In this document: in pieces, positions 16,294 through 58,952 of the stretch
How the letters are laid out: every line of letters begins with the position of its first letter
How positions within the stretch are numbered: position 1 is the stretch's first letter
Assembly: GCA_012513435.1 (NCBI GenBank)
Contig: JAAZCE010000008.1
Coordinates: forward strand, 30,046-94,045
DNA: 64,000 nucleotides
From: Clostridiales bacterium
GTDB lineage: Bacteria > Bacillota > Clostridia > Peptostreptococcales > Anaerovoracaceae
Reading direction: 5' to 3'
Notes under the pieces: model-generated
Databases searched by the model: none
What the model saw: the letters and a program-made list of their open reading frames with translations, nothing else
What the model was told of the DNA's origin: nothing
Program-made: the position numbers and the translations under genes

Positions 16294-16581
16294 TTGAATA
16301 CAGGCATCATGATTAATAAATTGCAACAGAAGCATCGTCGTCTCTCCTACGCGGTTCAAAACTTACAAAGGCTGTACGCTACGTTTCAAAATCAGAAGAC
16401 ATATATGGGAAACTTCCTTCTTGATGGAAGATCATCACTTTCAAACAACGCTACAGAAAATGCTATCAGACCATTTGTGACAGGTCGCAAGAACTGGCTG
16501 TTTGCAGACATGCCTAAAGGTGCGGATGCATCGTCTGCAGTCTACAGCCTTGTCCAAACGGCTAAAGCAAGACTTATTATT
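16294..16581 (+). pseudogene. IS66-family transposase fragment
   Basis: Only the C-terminal end of an IS66 TnpC is recognisable: NFLLDGRSSLSNNATENAIRPF then GRKNWLFADMPKGADASSAVYS. The catalytic DDE domain is missing. The 110-aa ORF continues past the IS part into unrelated sequence, so its tail (RLIIHNSPPDG...) is not transposase. No inverted repeats or partner orfs are seen. The fragment replaces the body of a hicB-like gene (see the HicA relic). Confidence 0.85.
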
Positions 16582-16583
16582 CA

Positions 16584-16755
16584 TAATTCACCTCCTGACG
16601 GGTTACTTGAGACCCGCCTGTTTTAAAATTGCACTCTCCAAACCCTTTTTAAGTTCTTTACTATGAAGAGGGACTTCGGTCTGTCTATTAGTTTTAACAT
16701 TTCTCATTTTTACGTGAGAACCATTCTGACTAACTTGTTCAAAACCGTTTTGCTT
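16584..16755 (-). pseudogene. Truncated HicA toxin and the start of a hicB gene
   Basis: The ORF track misses this. On the minus strand 16755-16603 reads KQNGFEQVSQNGSHVKM ... VPLHSKELKKGLESAILKQAGLK-stop. This matches HicA mRNA interferases, including the GSH motif with catalytic His and the typical KQAGLK end. The first ~9 residues are absent, because an in-frame stop precedes them. Downstream, CAGGAGGTGAATTATG is an intact ribosome site and start codon for the usual HicB antitoxin, but its body is replaced by the IS66 fragment. So it is a dead HicAB module. Confidence 0.75.
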
Positions 16756-20310: not shown

Positions 20311-21046
20311 GAATAGGAGCTTACAAAATCACTCATGTTCTTGAGCGTGATTATGGTGTTAATATCAGTGTCGGCAGAGTGTACCCACTGATGAAAACCA
20401 TGCAACTTCCAAAGATGTCCACACGTAAACCAAATTGCACTTATGCGACATCTGATATTGAATGCCCAAATCACCTTAAACAAAAATTCTATCCTGAGGA
20501 ACCTAATCAGGTATGGGCAAGTGATATTACCTATTTGCGTGTTGGTAGCACCTGGTTCTATTTATGTGTAATCATTGACCTTTTTTCTAGGAAAGTAATT
20601 TCCTGGAAAATTTCAGAAAACAATAATGTTGCCCTTACAATAGCCACCTTCAAATCAGCCTTTGAAGCTAGAAACCACCCTAAATATTTATTGTTTCACT
20701 CAGATAGGGGGGTGTCAGTACACCGCCTCATCTTTTCGCAAATTACTAGATTACTGCGATGTTTTGCAATCCTTTTCCAAAAAGGGTTACCCGTTTGATA
20801 ATGCTGTATTAGAAAATTTCTTTAAGTATCTAAAACCCTAAGAAACTAACCGTAACACATATCATTCGCTTAATGAATTGCAGCTATCCATCTTTGATTA
20901 TATTGAAGGTTTCTACAATTCCAGGCGGCCACATGGCACTCTTAATATAATGACCCCTGCTGAAAAGGAAGCTGCTTTCTTCAGGTCAGCTTAACCGGCC
21001 TGAAAATATTTTTTATTTTTGTGTCCAAAATATTGACTATAGTTCA
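20311..21046 (+). pseudogene. IS3-family (IS150-like) transposase OrfB relic with right end
   Basis: From ~20311 the frame reads KITHVLERDYGVNISVGRVYPLMK, then VWASDITYLRV (first catalytic Asp) and FHSDRGG (second Asp). A two-base insertion in the G-run near 20706-20715 shifts the frame. In the new frame QYTASSFRKLL ... ENFFKYLKP-stop-ETNRNTYHS ... GFYNSRRPHGTLN continues to a stop at 20994. So there is one frameshift and one nonsense codon, and the left end and OrfA are missing. GTGTCCAAAATATTGACTATAGTTCA at 21021-21046 looks like the right terminal repeat and interrupts the parA relic. Confidence 0.85.
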
Positions 21047-21346
21047 CTCCATACCTTTTGCCGGAAGATAATGAGCCTGTACCGGTATGATCACACTGTC
21101 CGCTGCTGATAACGCATTGATGGTTATCATTCCTAAGGATGGCATACAGTCTATAACGACAAAGTCAAAATTCTTCTTTACCTTATCTATATATTCTTTT
21201 AAAACTCTTTCCCGGTTCATAGTACCAACTAGGCTCATTCCCATGGCGGAAAGCTCAAGATTTGCAGCAGCCGTTGTTTTCCCTACTCCGCTTTTCTGAT
21301 TACAGATTGCAATCACTTTTCCTTTTTCTTTAACCATATCACTCAC
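21044..21346 (-). pseudogene. ParA-family ATPase relic from a conjugative element
   Basis: The 100-aa frame starts with an intact Walker A (GKVIAICNQKSGVGKTTAAANL) but jumps straight to ELSAMGMSLVGTMNRERVLKEYI and IDCMPSLGMITINALSAADSVIIPVQA. About 60-80 residues between these blocks are absent, and the protein stops at LPAKGME where ParA proteins continue. The C-terminal loss coincides with the IS3 end. The sequence type is that of ParA proteins in Tn1549-like integrative elements. It is a non-functional relic. Confidence 0.8.
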
Positions 21347-22183: not shown

Positions 22184-23917
22184 TTAATCATATTTAAATG
22201 CACATGCTGATAATTCATCTGTACATGACAAAGGATAGCCTTTTTGAGTTGTTCGCCCTTTTTCAGCAAATAAGTACAAATTTTCTTTTGCTCTTGAACA
22301 TAACACATAAAGCATTTTTTTCGTCTCCTCATGTCTAATTTTTTTTAATGCATCGTTATAAATATAATCCCAGTGTGGTAAATGACCATTTAATAAGTCA
22401 TATCCTATAACAGTTTTATATTCTTCGCCCTTTACTCCATGAATTGTACTTATAACAATTCCCTTTTTCTCTTTAAAACAACTCTCCATTGCATGACAAT
22501 CATATGGTAATTTGTATTCTTTTATTCTATGATTCACTTTATCAAAAAATTGTTGCTTTGCTTTTGAAAACTTGTCGTCTGGTTCTATTTTTACAGTTAC
22601 CAAAACCTTTTCTATGGCATTCTCCAAGGTGGCCAACCCATCATTACATATATACTTGGTTGAATTAATCGCCTTTAAGATATCCAACTTACTGAATCTT
22701 CCCAAAATATTAAATCCATAATCCTCTTTAACCATATTTAGAATATCATCGGCTTCCTTTCTTCTCAATAATCTATGTTCACTCTGTTTCGTAAACAGTA
22801 GTTTACAAATCAAAAAGAAAATATTTAGTGGGTCGTATTTAACGGGGGATATATCCGGTGCATCAAAGTGATTTTCTGGAAATTGCTTTCTTAATTCATT
22901 TGCCATTGGATATATTTGATACCACTGAGGCGCTACTATACAAATTTCTTCTTCTGGAGTCCCATTTTTAAGTTCCGTTTTAAGTATTGAAATAATCTCA
23001 GTTAATAGCTGATCTTTATCTATATTTGTATTTAACTTTATTTTTCCAATGGTATTTTTGCATTTGGATGCGGAATAAGCACCTGTTTCAGCCACCTCAT
23101 AATTCACATAATAGTCGACTATTCGTTGCGTTGAACGGTAGCACCCATCTAAACATTTTTCTAAAAAATTGACAGGGAATAGGGTTTTTATTTCATCAGC
23201 TGATTTAGCAACTCCACCCAAATTTCGGTAAATCGCCTGATTCACATCCCCAACAAATAAAATATTAATATTTTTGTTTTGCTTTACAATTAATGCTAAA
23301 ATCAGATACTGCCTTTCATTTGTATCCTGATATTCATCCACATGAATACTGCAAACAATATCCGAAATATTTTGAGCAATAAAAATGTTATGCTCAAGCA
23401 ATTCTTGTGAATATTGTAGAATCATATCAAAATCAATTTCTCTATTATCTAACATCTTTAATAAATATGTTTTCATTACAATATCATTTTTATATAAATC
23501 CTTTACATAAAATTTCTTTATACCCAATTCTCCCGCAATTTCCTTTAAATATTCATCTTTTACATATTCATCAATTATTCTATAACCTTTGCTTAACTGT
23601 TCATGATACATGGCATATGGACGGATTATATACTTCATACAAAATTGATGTATAGTACCTGTCCAAATATTTGAAACGTTAACACCCATAGCCATAATTC
23701 TATTTTCTATTTCATTTGCAGCCCTATTAGTATATGTTATCGCTATATTAATTTTTTTAGATTTTTTATATTTTTCTGCCATGTATGCCAAACGATAGGT
23801 AATAGTTCTTGTTTTTCCACTTCCGGGACAAGCTGTTAATATAAAATTATGGGGACTTTCACAAATGTTCTTTTGCTTTTCATTTAGTTCTTTCAAAAAA
23901 TCGTAATTATCATTCAT
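22184..23917 (-). CDS. gajB: Gabija-like GajB, UvrD/Rep-type superfamily 1 helicase
   Basis: 577 aa. SF1A helicase motifs are all present in order: Q-motif-like LNEKQKNIC, Walker A TACPGSGKTRT, Ia TYTNRAANEI, II HVDEYQDTN, III FVGDVNQAIY, IV GCYRSTQRI, V STIHGVKGEEY and VI LYVLCSRAKENLYL. It overlaps the upstream OLD-nuclease gene by 8 bases. That adjacency defines Gabija (GajA nuclease, GajB helicase sensing DNA ends or nucleotide depletion). It is somewhat longer than the ~490 aa of the characterised Bacillus GajB. No frameshift is visible, so it looks functional. Base composition is markedly AT-rich relative to guaA. Confidence 0.85.
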   Translation of the reverse strand: MNDNYDFLKELNEKQKNICESPHNFILTACPGSGKTRTITYRLAYMAEKYKKSKKINIAITYTNRAANEIENRIMAMGVNVSNIWTGTIHQFCMKYIIRPYAMYHEQLSKGYRIIDEYVKDEYLKEIAGELGIKKFYVKDLYKNDIVMKTYLLKMLDNREIDFDMILQYSQELLEHNIFIAQNISDIVCSIHVDEYQDTNERQYLILALIVKQNKNINILFVGDVNQAIYRNLGGVAKSADEIKTLFPVNFLEKCLDGCYRSTQRIVDYYVNYEVAETGAYSASKCKNTIGKIKLNTNIDKDQLLTEIISILKTELKNGTPEEEICIVAPQWYQIYPMANELRKQFPENHFDAPDISPVKYDPLNIFFLICKLLFTKQSEHRLLRRKEADDILNMVKEDYGFNILGRFSKLDILKAINSTKYICNDGLATLENAIEKVLVTVKIEPDDKFSKAKQQFFDKVNHRIKEYKLPYDCHAMESCFKEKKGIVISTIHGVKGEEYKTVIGYDLLNGHLPHWDYIYNDALKKIRHEETKKMLYVLCSRAKENLYLFAEKGRTTQKGYPLSCTDELSACAFKYD

Positions 23918-26048
23918 ATTGCCCTGCCAATCCCAAAAACTTTGAGACTATATCGTCTGGTAACCTAGAAATAAATTCTTGTAAAAATAATTCTTTATCT
24001 TTTTCACAATTAATTTCATCGTATTGTTTCAATAATTTTTCTATTTTATCATCATTGTTTGAATACTGTTTTAATGAAAAATAAGTCATTTTAAGTTTTA
24101 TAGCTGTTGTAAGGACTTCTCTACTCGCAAAAGCCAGTGCATCTAGAATATATTCCGGAATAACTGCCAAACAGTCTATATACTCAGACAAAATAGTAGC
24201 ATACCATCCTTTTTTCATTCCAGACGCAAGTGTTAATACGCTATCATAGCGTTTAGATGCAGAGGCATCCAAATTTTCTTTATGTTTTATTATTGTATCA
24301 GGGTCTGTATAGTGATAATCAATAATCTTTTTAACATATGGTCTATTTGCCTCCTCATTGCAGAAATCCACTTCTAAAGTGTAGGGCGCATAAAACATTT
24401 CAACATATGGATTGCTCCCAAACAACTTGTCTAATTTATCTTTTCTGCTTTGTCCTCTCTTTTCTGCCTCAGAACTACATTTTTTTGCTCCTGAAAGCTG
24501 CTGATCCATATCTGTAATAATTGCACAATATCTTTCTAATCTACATGGTTCAAAAATGCAAGCAATATATTCAAATGCTACACTGCCAACATTAATAAGT
24601 CCAATGCCCAACTCGTCTAATGATATACCCATTGTCTTTTTCACTAAGTTTGGTATAAGAATTTCTTCACCATCACCCTCGACCAAAACAATTCCCTTTG
24701 AAAATAGCAAAACACATCTTTTCGCATCCAAAAATCGTTCTAAACATTGTGTTAAGCTGACGTCCTTCAATTTAAGTTGCGTCTTACCAAATTCATTTAA
24801 CCCATTTGAAGGTTGCATAACTACCGAAATATTTTCTCTTCCCTTAAGCACATTAACTTTTGTTATATCTGCCACTTCCGATAAATGTGTTGAATGCGTT
24901 GTCATTAAAACTTGAGTATAATCCTTTGATACCTGCAAATTATCAAACAATGTCTTTTGAATATGAGTATGTATATGGGCTTCCGGCTCTTCTATAAGCA
25001 TAATATTAACTATTTCTCGATTTATGTTAAACTCAAACTCTACTAGTTTAAGAGCAATGAATAATATATTGAGATGCCCTAATCCCAAAAAATCTATGTC
25101 TTGTTTATCAGACGGCAACATCGTAATATACTTAGATAATACCGATATATCATCTTTCATTTGAGATTCTAGCACAATATTTGGCGAATAAACCAGCCCT
25201 ATTATCTCATCTAATTTATGATTTATTTGATGTCCAATACCAGATATTTGTCCTACACCGGAAATCTTAATATTTAATTCTTGTATTTTTTCTTTAATTT
25301 CGCTAATATCTAAGTCAGAAATATCAGCTCTAATGGAATCTACAATTCTTCTAATCGGATTTTTAGGTTTCTTTAATTCCGATTCAACATCACGCAAAGC
25401 ATCAATAAACACAACAGAGATATACTTCCATATCTCCAATATATCTAGTTTTCCACCTACAATAGCAGAATCCTCTTGTTCTGGATCTGCATACTGAAAT
25501 GAATCTATATCCCCTACAATTTCTTTATATACATCTTCCTTTGTAAAATCCACTTGTGATCTTGCAGTATATACAAATTCATAATCTTCAAGTTTAATTC
25601 TATTTCTTACTGCCTCAAATTCCTTTTTATCTTTTGCTTCAAAAAGTGCTTTTCGTATAGACTTTTGTGGGCGAATTAATAACGTAACCGTTCCATAATT
25701 ATATCCTTTACAACGTATAAAAGATTTTAAGAAATTTTCATTTTCCTTTTCAGGAACTATATCTTTACATGCTTCGTTACTCTTTTCCTCAGATGAAATT
25801 TCGTCAAAATAAGCTGAAATAATTATCCAATGACCTCTCCAATTTTTGAGAGAATCTGTAAAATCAGACTCTTTCAATCGCTTTGCATTATAATAAAAAG
25901 AATCATCGAGTAATATTCTCAATGCCGTTATTGCATTAGATTTACCAGAATCATTTTCTCCAATTATTGCATTAGCGCCTTTTCCAAAAGTGAATCTAGC
26001 TGATTTTAAATTTTTATAATTTACTATTTGCAAATATTTTAGATACAT
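23910..26048 (-). CDS. gajA: Gabija-like GajA, OLD-family ATPase with TOPRIM nuclease domain
   Basis: 712 aa from the ATG at 26048 (MYLKYLQIVNYKNLKSARF); GGAAGGA precedes it and overlaps the ORF-track TTG start. N-terminal SMC/ABC-like ATPase: Walker A GENDSGKSN at 30-38, Q-loop region YFDEIS, Walker B IMLIEEPEAHIH near 350 and TTHSTHLSEVA switch His. A dimerisation insert lies between the two halves. The TOPRIM domain follows with IVLVEGDGEEILIPNL (Glu) and AIITDMDQQ (DxD) near 500. A ~130-residue helical tail extends beyond the size of Bacillus GajA (~580 aa). Domain order and coupled helicase make a class 2 OLD/Gabija assignment likely. Confidence 0.83.
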   Translation of the reverse strand: MYLKYLQIVNYKNLKSARFTFGKGANAIIGENDSGKSNAITALRILLDDSFYYNAKRLKESDFTDSLKNWRGHWIIISAYFDEISSEEKSNEACKDIVPEKENENFLKSFIRCKGYNYGTVTLLIRPQKSIRKALFEAKDKKEFEAVRNRIKLEDYEFVYTARSQVDFTKEDVYKEIVGDIDSFQYADPEQEDSAIVGGKLDILEIWKYISVVFIDALRDVESELKKPKNPIRRIVDSIRADISDLDISEIKEKIQELNIKISGVGQISGIGHQINHKLDEIIGLVYSPNIVLESQMKDDISVLSKYITMLPSDKQDIDFLGLGHLNILFIALKLVEFEFNINREIVNIMLIEEPEAHIHTHIQKTLFDNLQVSKDYTQVLMTTHSTHLSEVADITKVNVLKGRENISVVMQPSNGLNEFGKTQLKLKDVSLTQCLERFLDAKRCVLLFSKGIVLVEGDGEEILIPNLVKKTMGISLDELGIGLINVGSVAFEYIACIFEPCRLERYCAIITDMDQQLSGAKKCSSEAEKRGQSRKDKLDKLFGSNPYVEMFYAPYTLEVDFCNEEANRPYVKKIIDYHYTDPDTIIKHKENLDASASKRYDSVLTLASGMKKGWYATILSEYIDCLAVIPEYILDALAFASREVLTTAIKLKMTYFSLKQYSNNDDKIEKLLKQYDEINCEKDKELFLQEFISRLPDDIVSKFLGLAGQYE

Positions 26049-26103
26049 ATTTATTCCTTCCAATGCTATTTATTCTTCCTGAAAGTTCAACATTTTATTT
26101 AAT

Positions 26104-46772: not shown

Positions 46773-46814
46773 TCGTACAAAAACACGCTTTCGCGCCGCA
46801 CGTCAAGTATTCTC

Positions 46815-46988
46815 GTTTCTTTCATCCGGACTATACCGTCGGTACAGGATTCACACCTATTCGGCCATCACAGCACCCGATGGATTGCTTGACATCGGCT
46901 CCTGTTCAGCTCGCGGACTTATAGCTTCTGCCTTATCAGCATCCGCTCATCACCGCCGGTGAGGACTTTCACCTCGCCCTGAAACAGA
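46815..46988 (-). ncRNA. FMN riboswitch (RFN element) controlling ribU
   Basis: The minus strand carries the conserved RFN core: CAGGGCGAGGTGAAAGTCCTCACCGGCGGT split across the opening stems, AGTCCGCGAGC, GACGGTATAGTCCGGATGAAAG at the 3' side, and variable arms between. All conserved blocks are present in order. Promoter, aptamer, terminator and ribU form a complete off-switch. Confidence 0.97.
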
Positions 46989-47002
46989 TTTTCACAAAAC
47001 AT

Positions 47003-57407: not shown

Positions 57408-57935
57408 TCAATATGTTGTTTCCAGAACTCCGTAATCGTTGTCGTTTCTCTTGTATACCACATTTACCGAATCCGTCTCCATATTAAGGAAAACATAGAA
57501 GTTGTGTGCCAGCAGTTCCATTTGGACTATGGCCTCATCCACCATCATAGGTTCCAGCTCAAACTTCTTCCTCTTCACAATGTGTATATCTTCCTGTTCC
57601 TCCTCAAAGGCCGGAAGGTCTGTAAACACTATTTCCTTATTACCCTTGTACTTTTTCTGAAGCTTAGTCTTGAATCTGGACATCTGAGTCGAAAGTTTTT
57701 CGATTACCCTGTCCACTGCATCGTAAGGATCTTCGGCCTTGACTTCGGCTCTGAAAATCGTTCCCTTTGCATTTATGGTAGCTTCTACTTTGTACCCGCC
57801 TTTCTCTCTTATTGTCATTACGTTACCGATGATTTCGTTTGAAAAATATTTATCTAGCTTTTCAAACTTCTTCTCTATAGTCTCTTTTAACTTATCGCTG
57901 GGACTATAGCTCTTACCAGTGATGTTTACCTTCAT
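57408..57935 (-). CDS. hpf: Ribosome hibernation-promoting factor (long form)
   Basis: 175 aa from the ATG at 57935 (MKVNITGKSYSPSDKLK), with AAGGAGGTTGTTATT upstream; the ORF-track N-terminal 40 residues are leader. N-terminal S30AE/RaiA domain (~1-100) and C-terminal dimerisation domain (IVKRKKFELEPMMVDEAIVQMELLAHNFYVFLN). Long HPF dimerises 70S ribosomes into 100S particles. Confidence 0.97.
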   Translation of the reverse strand: MKVNITGKSYSPSDKLKETIEKKFEKLDKYFSNEIIGNVMTIREKGGYKVEATINAKGTIFRAEVKAEDPYDAVDRVIEKLSTQMSRFKTKLQKKYKGNKEIVFTDLPAFEEEQEDIHIVKRKKFELEPMMVDEAIVQMELLAHNFYVFLNMETDSVNVVYKRNDNDYGVLETTY

Positions 57936-57966
57936 AATAACAACCTCCTTTTGTAGGCTTTTCTTT

Positions 57967-57975
57967 ATTATACCA
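57967..57975 (-). promoter_or_regulatory. Extended -10 promoter of hpf
   Basis: Minus-strand TGGTATAAT, a perfect TATAAT with TG at -15, ~32 bases upstream of the hpf ATG. -35 weak (TTTATT, 16-bp spacer). Confidence 0.65.
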
Positions 57976-58010
57976 TATCTTGTGTGATAATAAAGTGTTT
58001 TTGTTCTGTA

Positions 58011-58198
58011 TGCAATATGTATATGACTCAGCTGACCTGATCTTTGCCCCCACACTTGCCTTTACCCGACTTTGTCGGAGGACTTACATCTAAACTACGC
58101 CATGCTCACTGCCGCTTTGCGGAACAGCTTACGTGGGACCCTTCGCCCGTAGCTGGCCTGGCCTTTCAATCACAGACCTGAGTCATATACATATTGCA
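58011..58198 (-). ncRNA. Probable raiA-motif structured RNA between comF and hpf
   Basis: A perfect 21-bp inverted repeat (TGCAATATGTATATGACTCAG at 58178-58198 read on minus; its complement at 58011-58031) encloses ~146 bases rich in conserved-looking GC elements. These include GGGCGAAGGGTCCCACGTAAGCTG, CCGCAAAGCGG and CCGACAAAGTCGG. Position directly upstream of hpf (raiA), size (~190 nt) and long closing stem agree with the raiA RNA motif. The 5' arm of the closing stem is the last codons of comF. I compared with the motif from memory only. Confidence 0.7.
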
Positions 58199-58952
58199 CC
58201 GGCTTCTTGTTGCCGCCCGAAGCTAAGGTAAGCAGCAATACTGCTTCTGCGCCCGCCTCAAGCAGCGTTTTGCTGCAGGAATCCGCCGTACTTCCGGTGG
58301 TATATATGTCATCTATAAGTAAAACCTTTTTATTGTAAACTTTCTCAAGTGCGCCAGAGCATACTGCAAAGGCTCCTCTCAAAGCGCTTTCCCTTTCCAC
58401 AGGGCTGAGGCTTCTCAGCAAGGCAGTCTCTCTTGTTCTGACCACAGCATCCCCGAGAAAAGGTTTTTCCATTTTTTTCGCCAGAGATTCGGCCATAAGT
58501 GCCGACTGATTATATCCCCTTTTTCTTTCTCTCCTCCTGTGTATCGGTACGGGAATTATAACATCTGCATCTATGTTTTCACAAGACATTCTGTCATATA
58601 ATATATCTCCGAATTTCTTTCCCAAATAGCTTTTGCCATTGTACTTGTAATCAAGTAAAAGTTCACGCTCTTTCAGACCATAGGTCATGCAGCTGTATCC
58701 CTTATCAAAATAGTGAGGATATGCCATGCAGTCGTAGCACAGCTGCCCCTTGTATGTGTCCTGCAAGGCTTTGCCGCATTTTCGGCACCTTCTGCCATTT
58801 ATCCAGTGAAACTCTCTGATACACTTGTCACAGAGAGAATAGGGCCTCGTCCCGTCTATAAGGCTGCCGCAGCTTATACAATAAATACCCGACGGAAACA
58901 ATGCCTCGTCCACAACCTTTATTGCTCTCTCCCAAATACCGCCTCTATCCAT
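58170..58952 (-). CDS. comF: ComF-family phosphoribosyltransferase-like protein
   Basis: 260 aa. N-terminal double zinc ribbon (CISCG...CDKC; CRKCGKAL...CYDC). C-terminal PRTase domain with PRPP loop VLLIDDIYTTGSTADS. Needed for DNA uptake in competent bacteria. The last 7 codons form one arm of the putative raiA RNA closing stem. Confidence 0.92.
   Translation of the reverse strand: MDRGGIWERAIKVVDEALFPSGIYCISCGSLIDGTRPYSLCDKCIREFHWINGRRCRKCGKALQDTYKGQLCYDCMAYPHYFDKGYSCMTYGLKERELLLDYKYNGKSYLGKKFGDILYDRMSCENIDADVIIPVPIHRRRERKRGYNQSALMAESLAKKMEKPFLGDAVVRTRETALLRSLSPVERESALRGAFAVCSGALEKVYNKKVLLIDDIYTTGSTADSCSKTLLEAGAEAVLLLTLASGGNKKPVQYVYDSGL

What the first reader, a model, noticed from the sequence alone, without database searches (positions are those of the whole stretch)
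22184..26048. Intact Gabija-like anti-phage operon with enlarged GajA and GajB
An OLD-family ATPase/TOPRIM nuclease gene overlaps by 8 bases a UvrD-type helicase with every SF1 motif intact. That is the Gabija architecture. Both proteins are longer than the Bacillus founders as I remember them (712 vs ~580 and 577 vs ~490 aa), GajA mainly through a ~130-residue C-terminal helical tail, so this may be a divergent subtype.
Basis: partly seen in the sequence, partly recalled or inferred. Interest (0 to 1): 0.7.

Follow-up and report, generated by a model that had tools for sequence, protein, structure and literature searches.

The report
Ordinary long-form Gabija phage-defence operon
This is an intact two-gene Gabija anti-phage defence operon (an ATPase-nuclease plus a helicase) that the bacterium probably acquired from elsewhere; its larger-than-textbook proteins belong to a widespread, already catalogued branch of Gabija, so it is a normal member rather than something new.

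Summary
On the minus strand, gajA (26048-23910, 712 aa) overlaps gajB (23917-22184, 577 aa) by 8 bases; both frames are open, with a good ribosome-binding site before gajA. The Gabija reading is also right. The best PADLOC models are GajA PDLC00072 (783 bits, residues 1-705 on 1-705 of 709) and GajB PDLC00127 (631 bits). The top four Foldseek hits of the predicted GajA are Gabija GajA structures. All catalytic residues are invariant in 58 homologues (GajA) and 48 (GajB). The enlargement is not new. PADLOC's own best-matching model is 709 positions long, and 80 related loci have a median GajA of 713 aa and a median GajB of 594 aa; 79 of the 80 have GajB directly downstream. The tail is the least conserved part. 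The operon is AT-rich (30-31% GC against 43%), absent from 48 congeners, and lies beside transposase and ParA fragments, so it was probably acquired horizontally. Mechanism by homology: a nucleotide-gated GajA4-GajB4 complex that attacks incoming phage DNA. Low interest; new member of a known kind.

The parts
23910..26048 (-). gajA: class 2 OLD nuclease, ABC ATPase plus TOPRIM, 712 aa
   Evidence: PADLOC GajA PDLC00072, 783 bits over 1-705/709; Pfam AAA_15 and OLD-like_TOPRIM; Foldseek best hits are Gabija GajA; catalytic residues invariant in 58 homologues
22184..23917 (-). gajB: UvrD/PcrA/Rep-like SF1A helicase, 577 aa
   Evidence: PADLOC GajB PDLC00127, 631 bits over 6-592/594; Pfam UvrD-helicase and UvrD_C; helicase motifs invariant in 48 homologues; model pLDDT 88.6
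23910..23917 (-). 8-base overlap of gajA end and gajB start
   Evidence: coordinates; an 8-base overlap recurs in 11 of 80 related loci
23913..24119 (-). C-terminal helical tail of GajA, residues 644-712 (69 aa), beyond the end of canonical-length GajA profiles
   Evidence: PDLC00070, 00071 and 00091 matches end at residue 643; four helices, block pLDDT about 82-95; mean majority-residue frequency 0.29 against 0.60 for the TOPRIM part
26049..26062 (-). probable ribosome-binding site GGAAGGA before gajA
   Evidence: direct reading

Best explanation
It is an intact, horizontally acquired Gabija operon of the long-GajA branch. GajA, a class 2 OLD protein, is expected to form a tetramer through its ATPase and dimerization domains, and GajB, a UvrD-like helicase, to dock on it as a 4:4 complex. 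At normal nucleotide levels the nuclease is held off. When phage replication depletes nucleotides, and/or when phage DNA ends are exposed without the host end-processing enzyme (here AddAB rather than RecBCD), the TOPRIM site nicks or cuts the DNA and stops the infection. Shown here: genes, domains, intact active sites, pairing, fold, patchy distribution. Inferred from characterised Gabija systems: assembly, trigger, target and outcome.
For: GajA and GajB are the best PADLOC families for both proteins, at full length. The predicted GajA fold matches 8x5i, 8u7i and 8sm3 (Gabija GajA) best. GajA residues E457, E461, D513, D515, T557, E559 and K613 align with the BpOLD/GajA catalytic set (site list from PMC10822852) and are invariant in 58 homologues, as are K36, E353/E354 and H385 of the ATPase. 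GajB motif residues Q15, G34-K35-T36, D194-E195-Q197-D198, R261, K496-G497-E499 and R542 are invariant in 48. The pair is adjacent in 79 of 80 related loci; the exception is a contig end. GC is 30-31% against 43% for the rest of the window; 0 of 48 congeners carry it, and 2 of 298 genomes of the family have this profile. Host AddA is present. Mechanistic anchors: PMC10781630, PMC10822852, PMC10568477, PMC12407980.
Against: No phage, expression or biochemical data. Sequence similarity to the solved B. cereus GajA is weak, and the region 220-318, which includes the dimerization domain, was predicted with pLDDT below 50 in places, so tetramerization was not modelled. The 4:4 complex could not be predicted with the tools at hand.
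Confidence: 0.95

Rival explanations
1. The pair is a functionally distinct long-form Gabija subtype: the extra ATPase-half segment and the C-terminal helical tail change assembly, the trigger or the target relative to B. cereus Gabija.
For: GajA is about 130 residues longer than B. cereus GajA; the tail region is present in the aligned homologues (occupancy 0.94) and confidently helical.
Against: The tail is the least conserved part. All catalytic residues and the partner helicase are unchanged. Other PADLOC GajA models are as long (670-752 positions), so length varies widely within Gabija. No third gene recurs generally next to the long pair: the largest neighbour cluster occurs in 10 of 77 loci and looks like an integrase.
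Confidence: 0.15
2. It is an OLD-UvrD pair of another system: a stand-alone class 1 OLD beside an unrelated helicase, a PARIS AriA, or a retron Eco8-like effector.
For: Weak PADLOC hits to AriA (about 1e-31) and Old (4e-26) and an NCBIfam hit to the retron Eco8 effector (35 bits, cut-off 250).
Against: GajA models score far higher (783 against 109 bits for AriA). No reverse transcriptase or AriB-like partner was seen in the surrounding ORFs. The helicase is a full-length GajB match and the pair is conserved.
Confidence: 0.02
3. The operon is a decaying leftover of a mobile element and is not active in this host.
For: Neighbouring genes are fragments: an IS3-type transposase piece, a 100-aa ParA piece, a SpoIIE-domain piece.
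Against: Both Gabija genes are full length with every catalytic residue intact, while the neighbours are broken.
Confidence: 0.08

Closest known systems
Gabija of Bacillus cereus VD045 (GajA 578 aa, GajB about 494 aa; PDB 8SM3, 8JQB)
   Same: Same gene order, ATPase-TOPRIM GajA plus UvrD-like GajB; same nuclease, ATPase and helicase residues
   Different: GajA longer by about 130 residues (about 60-70 in the ATPase half, about 69 as a C-terminal tail); GajB longer by about 80; weak sequence similarity
Long-GajA Gabija branch, PADLOC PDLC00072 + PDLC00127
   Same: Full-length match, same lengths, same overlap style; nearest relatives 56-61% identical in Clostridia and Paenibacillus
   Different: Nothing of note
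Class 2 OLD proteins of Burkholderia pseudomallei and Xanthomonas campestris (C-terminal regions 6NK8, 6NJV)
   Same: TOPRIM region aligns up to about residue 645, with the same metal-binding and lysine residues
   Different: The solved constructs end where the tail of this protein begins

Membership tests
Gabija (GajA-GajB) | GajA: ABC ATPase joined to an OLD-type TOPRIM nuclease domain | tested here: met
   Pfam AAA_15 and OLD-like_TOPRIM above cut-off; PADLOC GajA 783 bits
Gabija (GajA-GajB) | Complete TOPRIM and ATPase active sites | tested here: met
   E457, E461, D513, D515, T557, E559, K613, K36, E353/E354, H385 invariant in 58 homologues; alignment to 6NK8 and GajA
Gabija (GajA-GajB) | GajB: UvrD/PcrA/Rep-like SF1A helicase encoded directly downstream | tested here: met
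   8-base overlap; PADLOC GajB 631 bits; motifs invariant; pairing in 79 of 80 relatives
Gabija (GajA-GajB) | GajA fold like solved GajA | tested here: met
   Best four Foldseek hits are Gabija GajA, E 4e-20 to 1e-16; TM-scores modest (0.42/0.52), with part of the model at low confidence
Gabija (GajA-GajB) | GajA tetramer and 4:4 complex with GajB | not testable with these tools
   Only single chains can be predicted here
Gabija (GajA-GajB) | Protection against phage that needs both genes | not testable with these tools
   Needs a phage challenge
PARIS (AriA-AriB) | AriA ATPase with AriB TOPRIM-type partner gene | tested here: not met
   AriA model scores 109 bits against 783 for GajA; the partner is a UvrD helicase
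Retron Eco8-type (class 3 OLD) | OLD effector next to a reverse transcriptase and retron RNA | tested here: not met
   35 bits against a cut-off of 250; no reverse transcriptase among neighbouring ORFs; no retron RNA family

The most novel reading that the evidence does not exclude
The long-GajA branch is a mechanistically distinct Gabija subtype in which the C-terminal helical tail and the ATPase-half extension alter assembly, the trigger or sensitivity to phage inhibitors such as Gad1.
Probability: 0.15. Interest if true: 0.4.

Novelty: new member of a known kind. Interest (0 to 1): 0.12.

Why it matters
It adds one intact Gabija system, carried by one of 49 genomes examined in its genus, and clarifies that the solved B. 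cereus Gabija is a short form: many Gabija systems carry a GajA of about 710 aa with a variable helical tail for which no solved structure was found by sequence. If that tail changed how Gabija assembles or is inhibited, it would matter for predicting counter-defence, but nothing here shows that.

Tried and rejected
Class 1 OLD, PARIS and retron readings were rejected on profile scores and context. A search for an extra third gene conserved near long GajAB found no general one; the larger clusters appear to be mobile-element genes and near-identical copies of one element. A search for an empty insertion site was inconclusive: the closest congeners keep guaA, but the sequence after guaA differs, and the DUF2520 gene on the other side is not next to guaA, so the exact boundary of the insertion cannot be drawn. 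Repeats around the operon gave only AT-rich, chance-like pairs and no convincing target-site duplication. The promoter scan was at chance level. The tail alone has no relative among solved structures by sequence. A PF04851 search of the own genome gave nothing useful.

Full report
Observation. The two genes lie on the minus strand at 26048-23910 (712 aa) and 23917-22184 (577 aa), overlapping by 8 bases. The ATG start of the first gene has a ribosome-binding site (GGAAGGA) at the right distance; the alternative TTG at 26063 overlaps that site. Neither gene has a stop or frameshift. The region is 30-31% GC, against 43% for the rest of the window. Third-position GC is 22-24% in the pair, against 43-51% in three neighbouring genes.

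Identity. PADLOC assigns the first protein to GajA (PDLC00072, 783 bits, residues 1-705 on profile positions 1-705 of 709) and the second to GajB (PDLC00127, 631 bits, 6-592 of 594). Pfam gives AAA_15, OLD-like_TOPRIM, UvrD-helicase and UvrD_C. NCBIfam has no model above its cut-off. The AlphaFold model of GajA (pLDDT 80) has Gabija GajA structures as its first four PDB neighbours. The GajB model (pLDDT 88.6) matches UvrD/PcrA/Rep best and also solved GajB structures. The model of GajA is poor in parts of residues 220-318, so TM-scores are modest and the oligomer interfaces were not tested.

Active sites. Aligned with the Burkholderia class 2 OLD TOPRIM region and with B. cereus GajA, the metal-binding and catalytic residues described in PMC10822852 correspond to E457, E461, D513, D515, T557, E559 and K613 here. 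These, the Walker A lysine K36, the Walker B pair E353/E354 and the H-loop H385 are invariant in 58 homologues. In GajB the Q motif (Q15), Walker A (G34-K35-T36), DEYQD (D194, E195, Q197, D198), motif IV arginine R261, motif V (K496, G497, E499) and motif VI arginine R542 are invariant in 48 homologues. The assignment of motif names to these GajB positions is from general knowledge of SF1 helicases.

Size. A genome-collection scan confirmed 192 relatives of GajA and kept 80 of them. Their median GajA length is 713 aa and median GajB length 594 aa, and GajB lies directly downstream in 79 of 80; the missing one is at a contig end, and a few GajB frames are cut by contig ends or otherwise short. 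Fourteen are 56-61% identical (Clostridia, Paenibacillus and related MAGs); the rest are about 34-40% identical and span Bacteroidota, Proteobacteria, Planctomycetes, Patescibacteria and others. tblastn finds GajA relatives on 1174 plasmid records, 117 of them covering at least 80% of the protein. The enlarged size is therefore the norm for a widespread branch, and PADLOC already has a dedicated model for it. Profiles of canonical length (588-627 positions) end at residue 643 of this protein and reach residue 205-208 after only 137-149 positions. The extra length is thus about 59-69 residues in the ATPase half plus a 69-residue tail, not a 130-residue tail. The tail is four predicted helices, is present in nearly all homologues, and is the least conserved segment (0.29 majority-residue frequency against 0.60 in the TOPRIM part).

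Context. Upstream of gajA lie a small lipoprotein-like ORF (no Pfam hit), an HTH gene and guaA. Downstream lie a truncated ParA, an IS3-type transposase fragment, a SpoIIE-domain fragment and housekeeping genes. None of 48 other genomes of the genus carries the protein, and only 2 of 298 genomes of the family, this one included, match PDLC00072. In the closest congeners guaA is conserved, and in those with sequence beyond it what follows differs. Together with the AT-richness this indicates horizontal acquisition into a variable spot beside guaA; no exact boundary or target duplication was found. The assembly has 7.4% estimated contamination, but the operon lies well inside a contig with ordinary flanks.

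Mechanism. Characterised Gabija forms a GajA4-GajB4 complex with a two-metal TOPRIM nuclease (PMC10781630, PMC10822852). B. cereus GajA is a nicking nuclease inhibited by nucleotides (PMC8136825 abstract; PMC10568477). P. aeruginosa PA14 Gabija attacks linear DNA not protected by RecBCD (PMC12407980, a preprint). The present genome encodes AddA, so an AddAB version of that rule is plausible. All of this is inference by homology for the present operon.

Verdict. Ordinary; low interest.

Noticed in passing
58023-58186 (-): raiA motif RNA (RF03072, 130 bits, full length) in the gap between a comF-like phosphoribosyltransferase gene (58170-58952) and a ribosome hibernation factor gene (57408-58055); a structured RNA whose function, as far as I know, is unsettled. 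The two gene names are by eye from the translations.
   Followed up: partly
46810-46990 (-): FMN riboswitch aptamer (RF00050, 95 bits).
   Followed up: no
20379-21346: Remnants of mobile DNA next to the operon: a broken IS3-type transposase (rve domain) and a 100-aa truncated ParA.
   Followed up: partly
16294-16626 (+): Fragment of an IS66-family transposase.
   Followed up: no
L102 6631-9695: In a congener, the region after guaA carries a polynucleotide kinase-phosphatase-like gene and a Hen1-like RNA methyltransferase gene (domain calls by eye, not by search), where the present genome has Gabija nearby; this suggests a variable spot beside guaA.
   Followed up: partly
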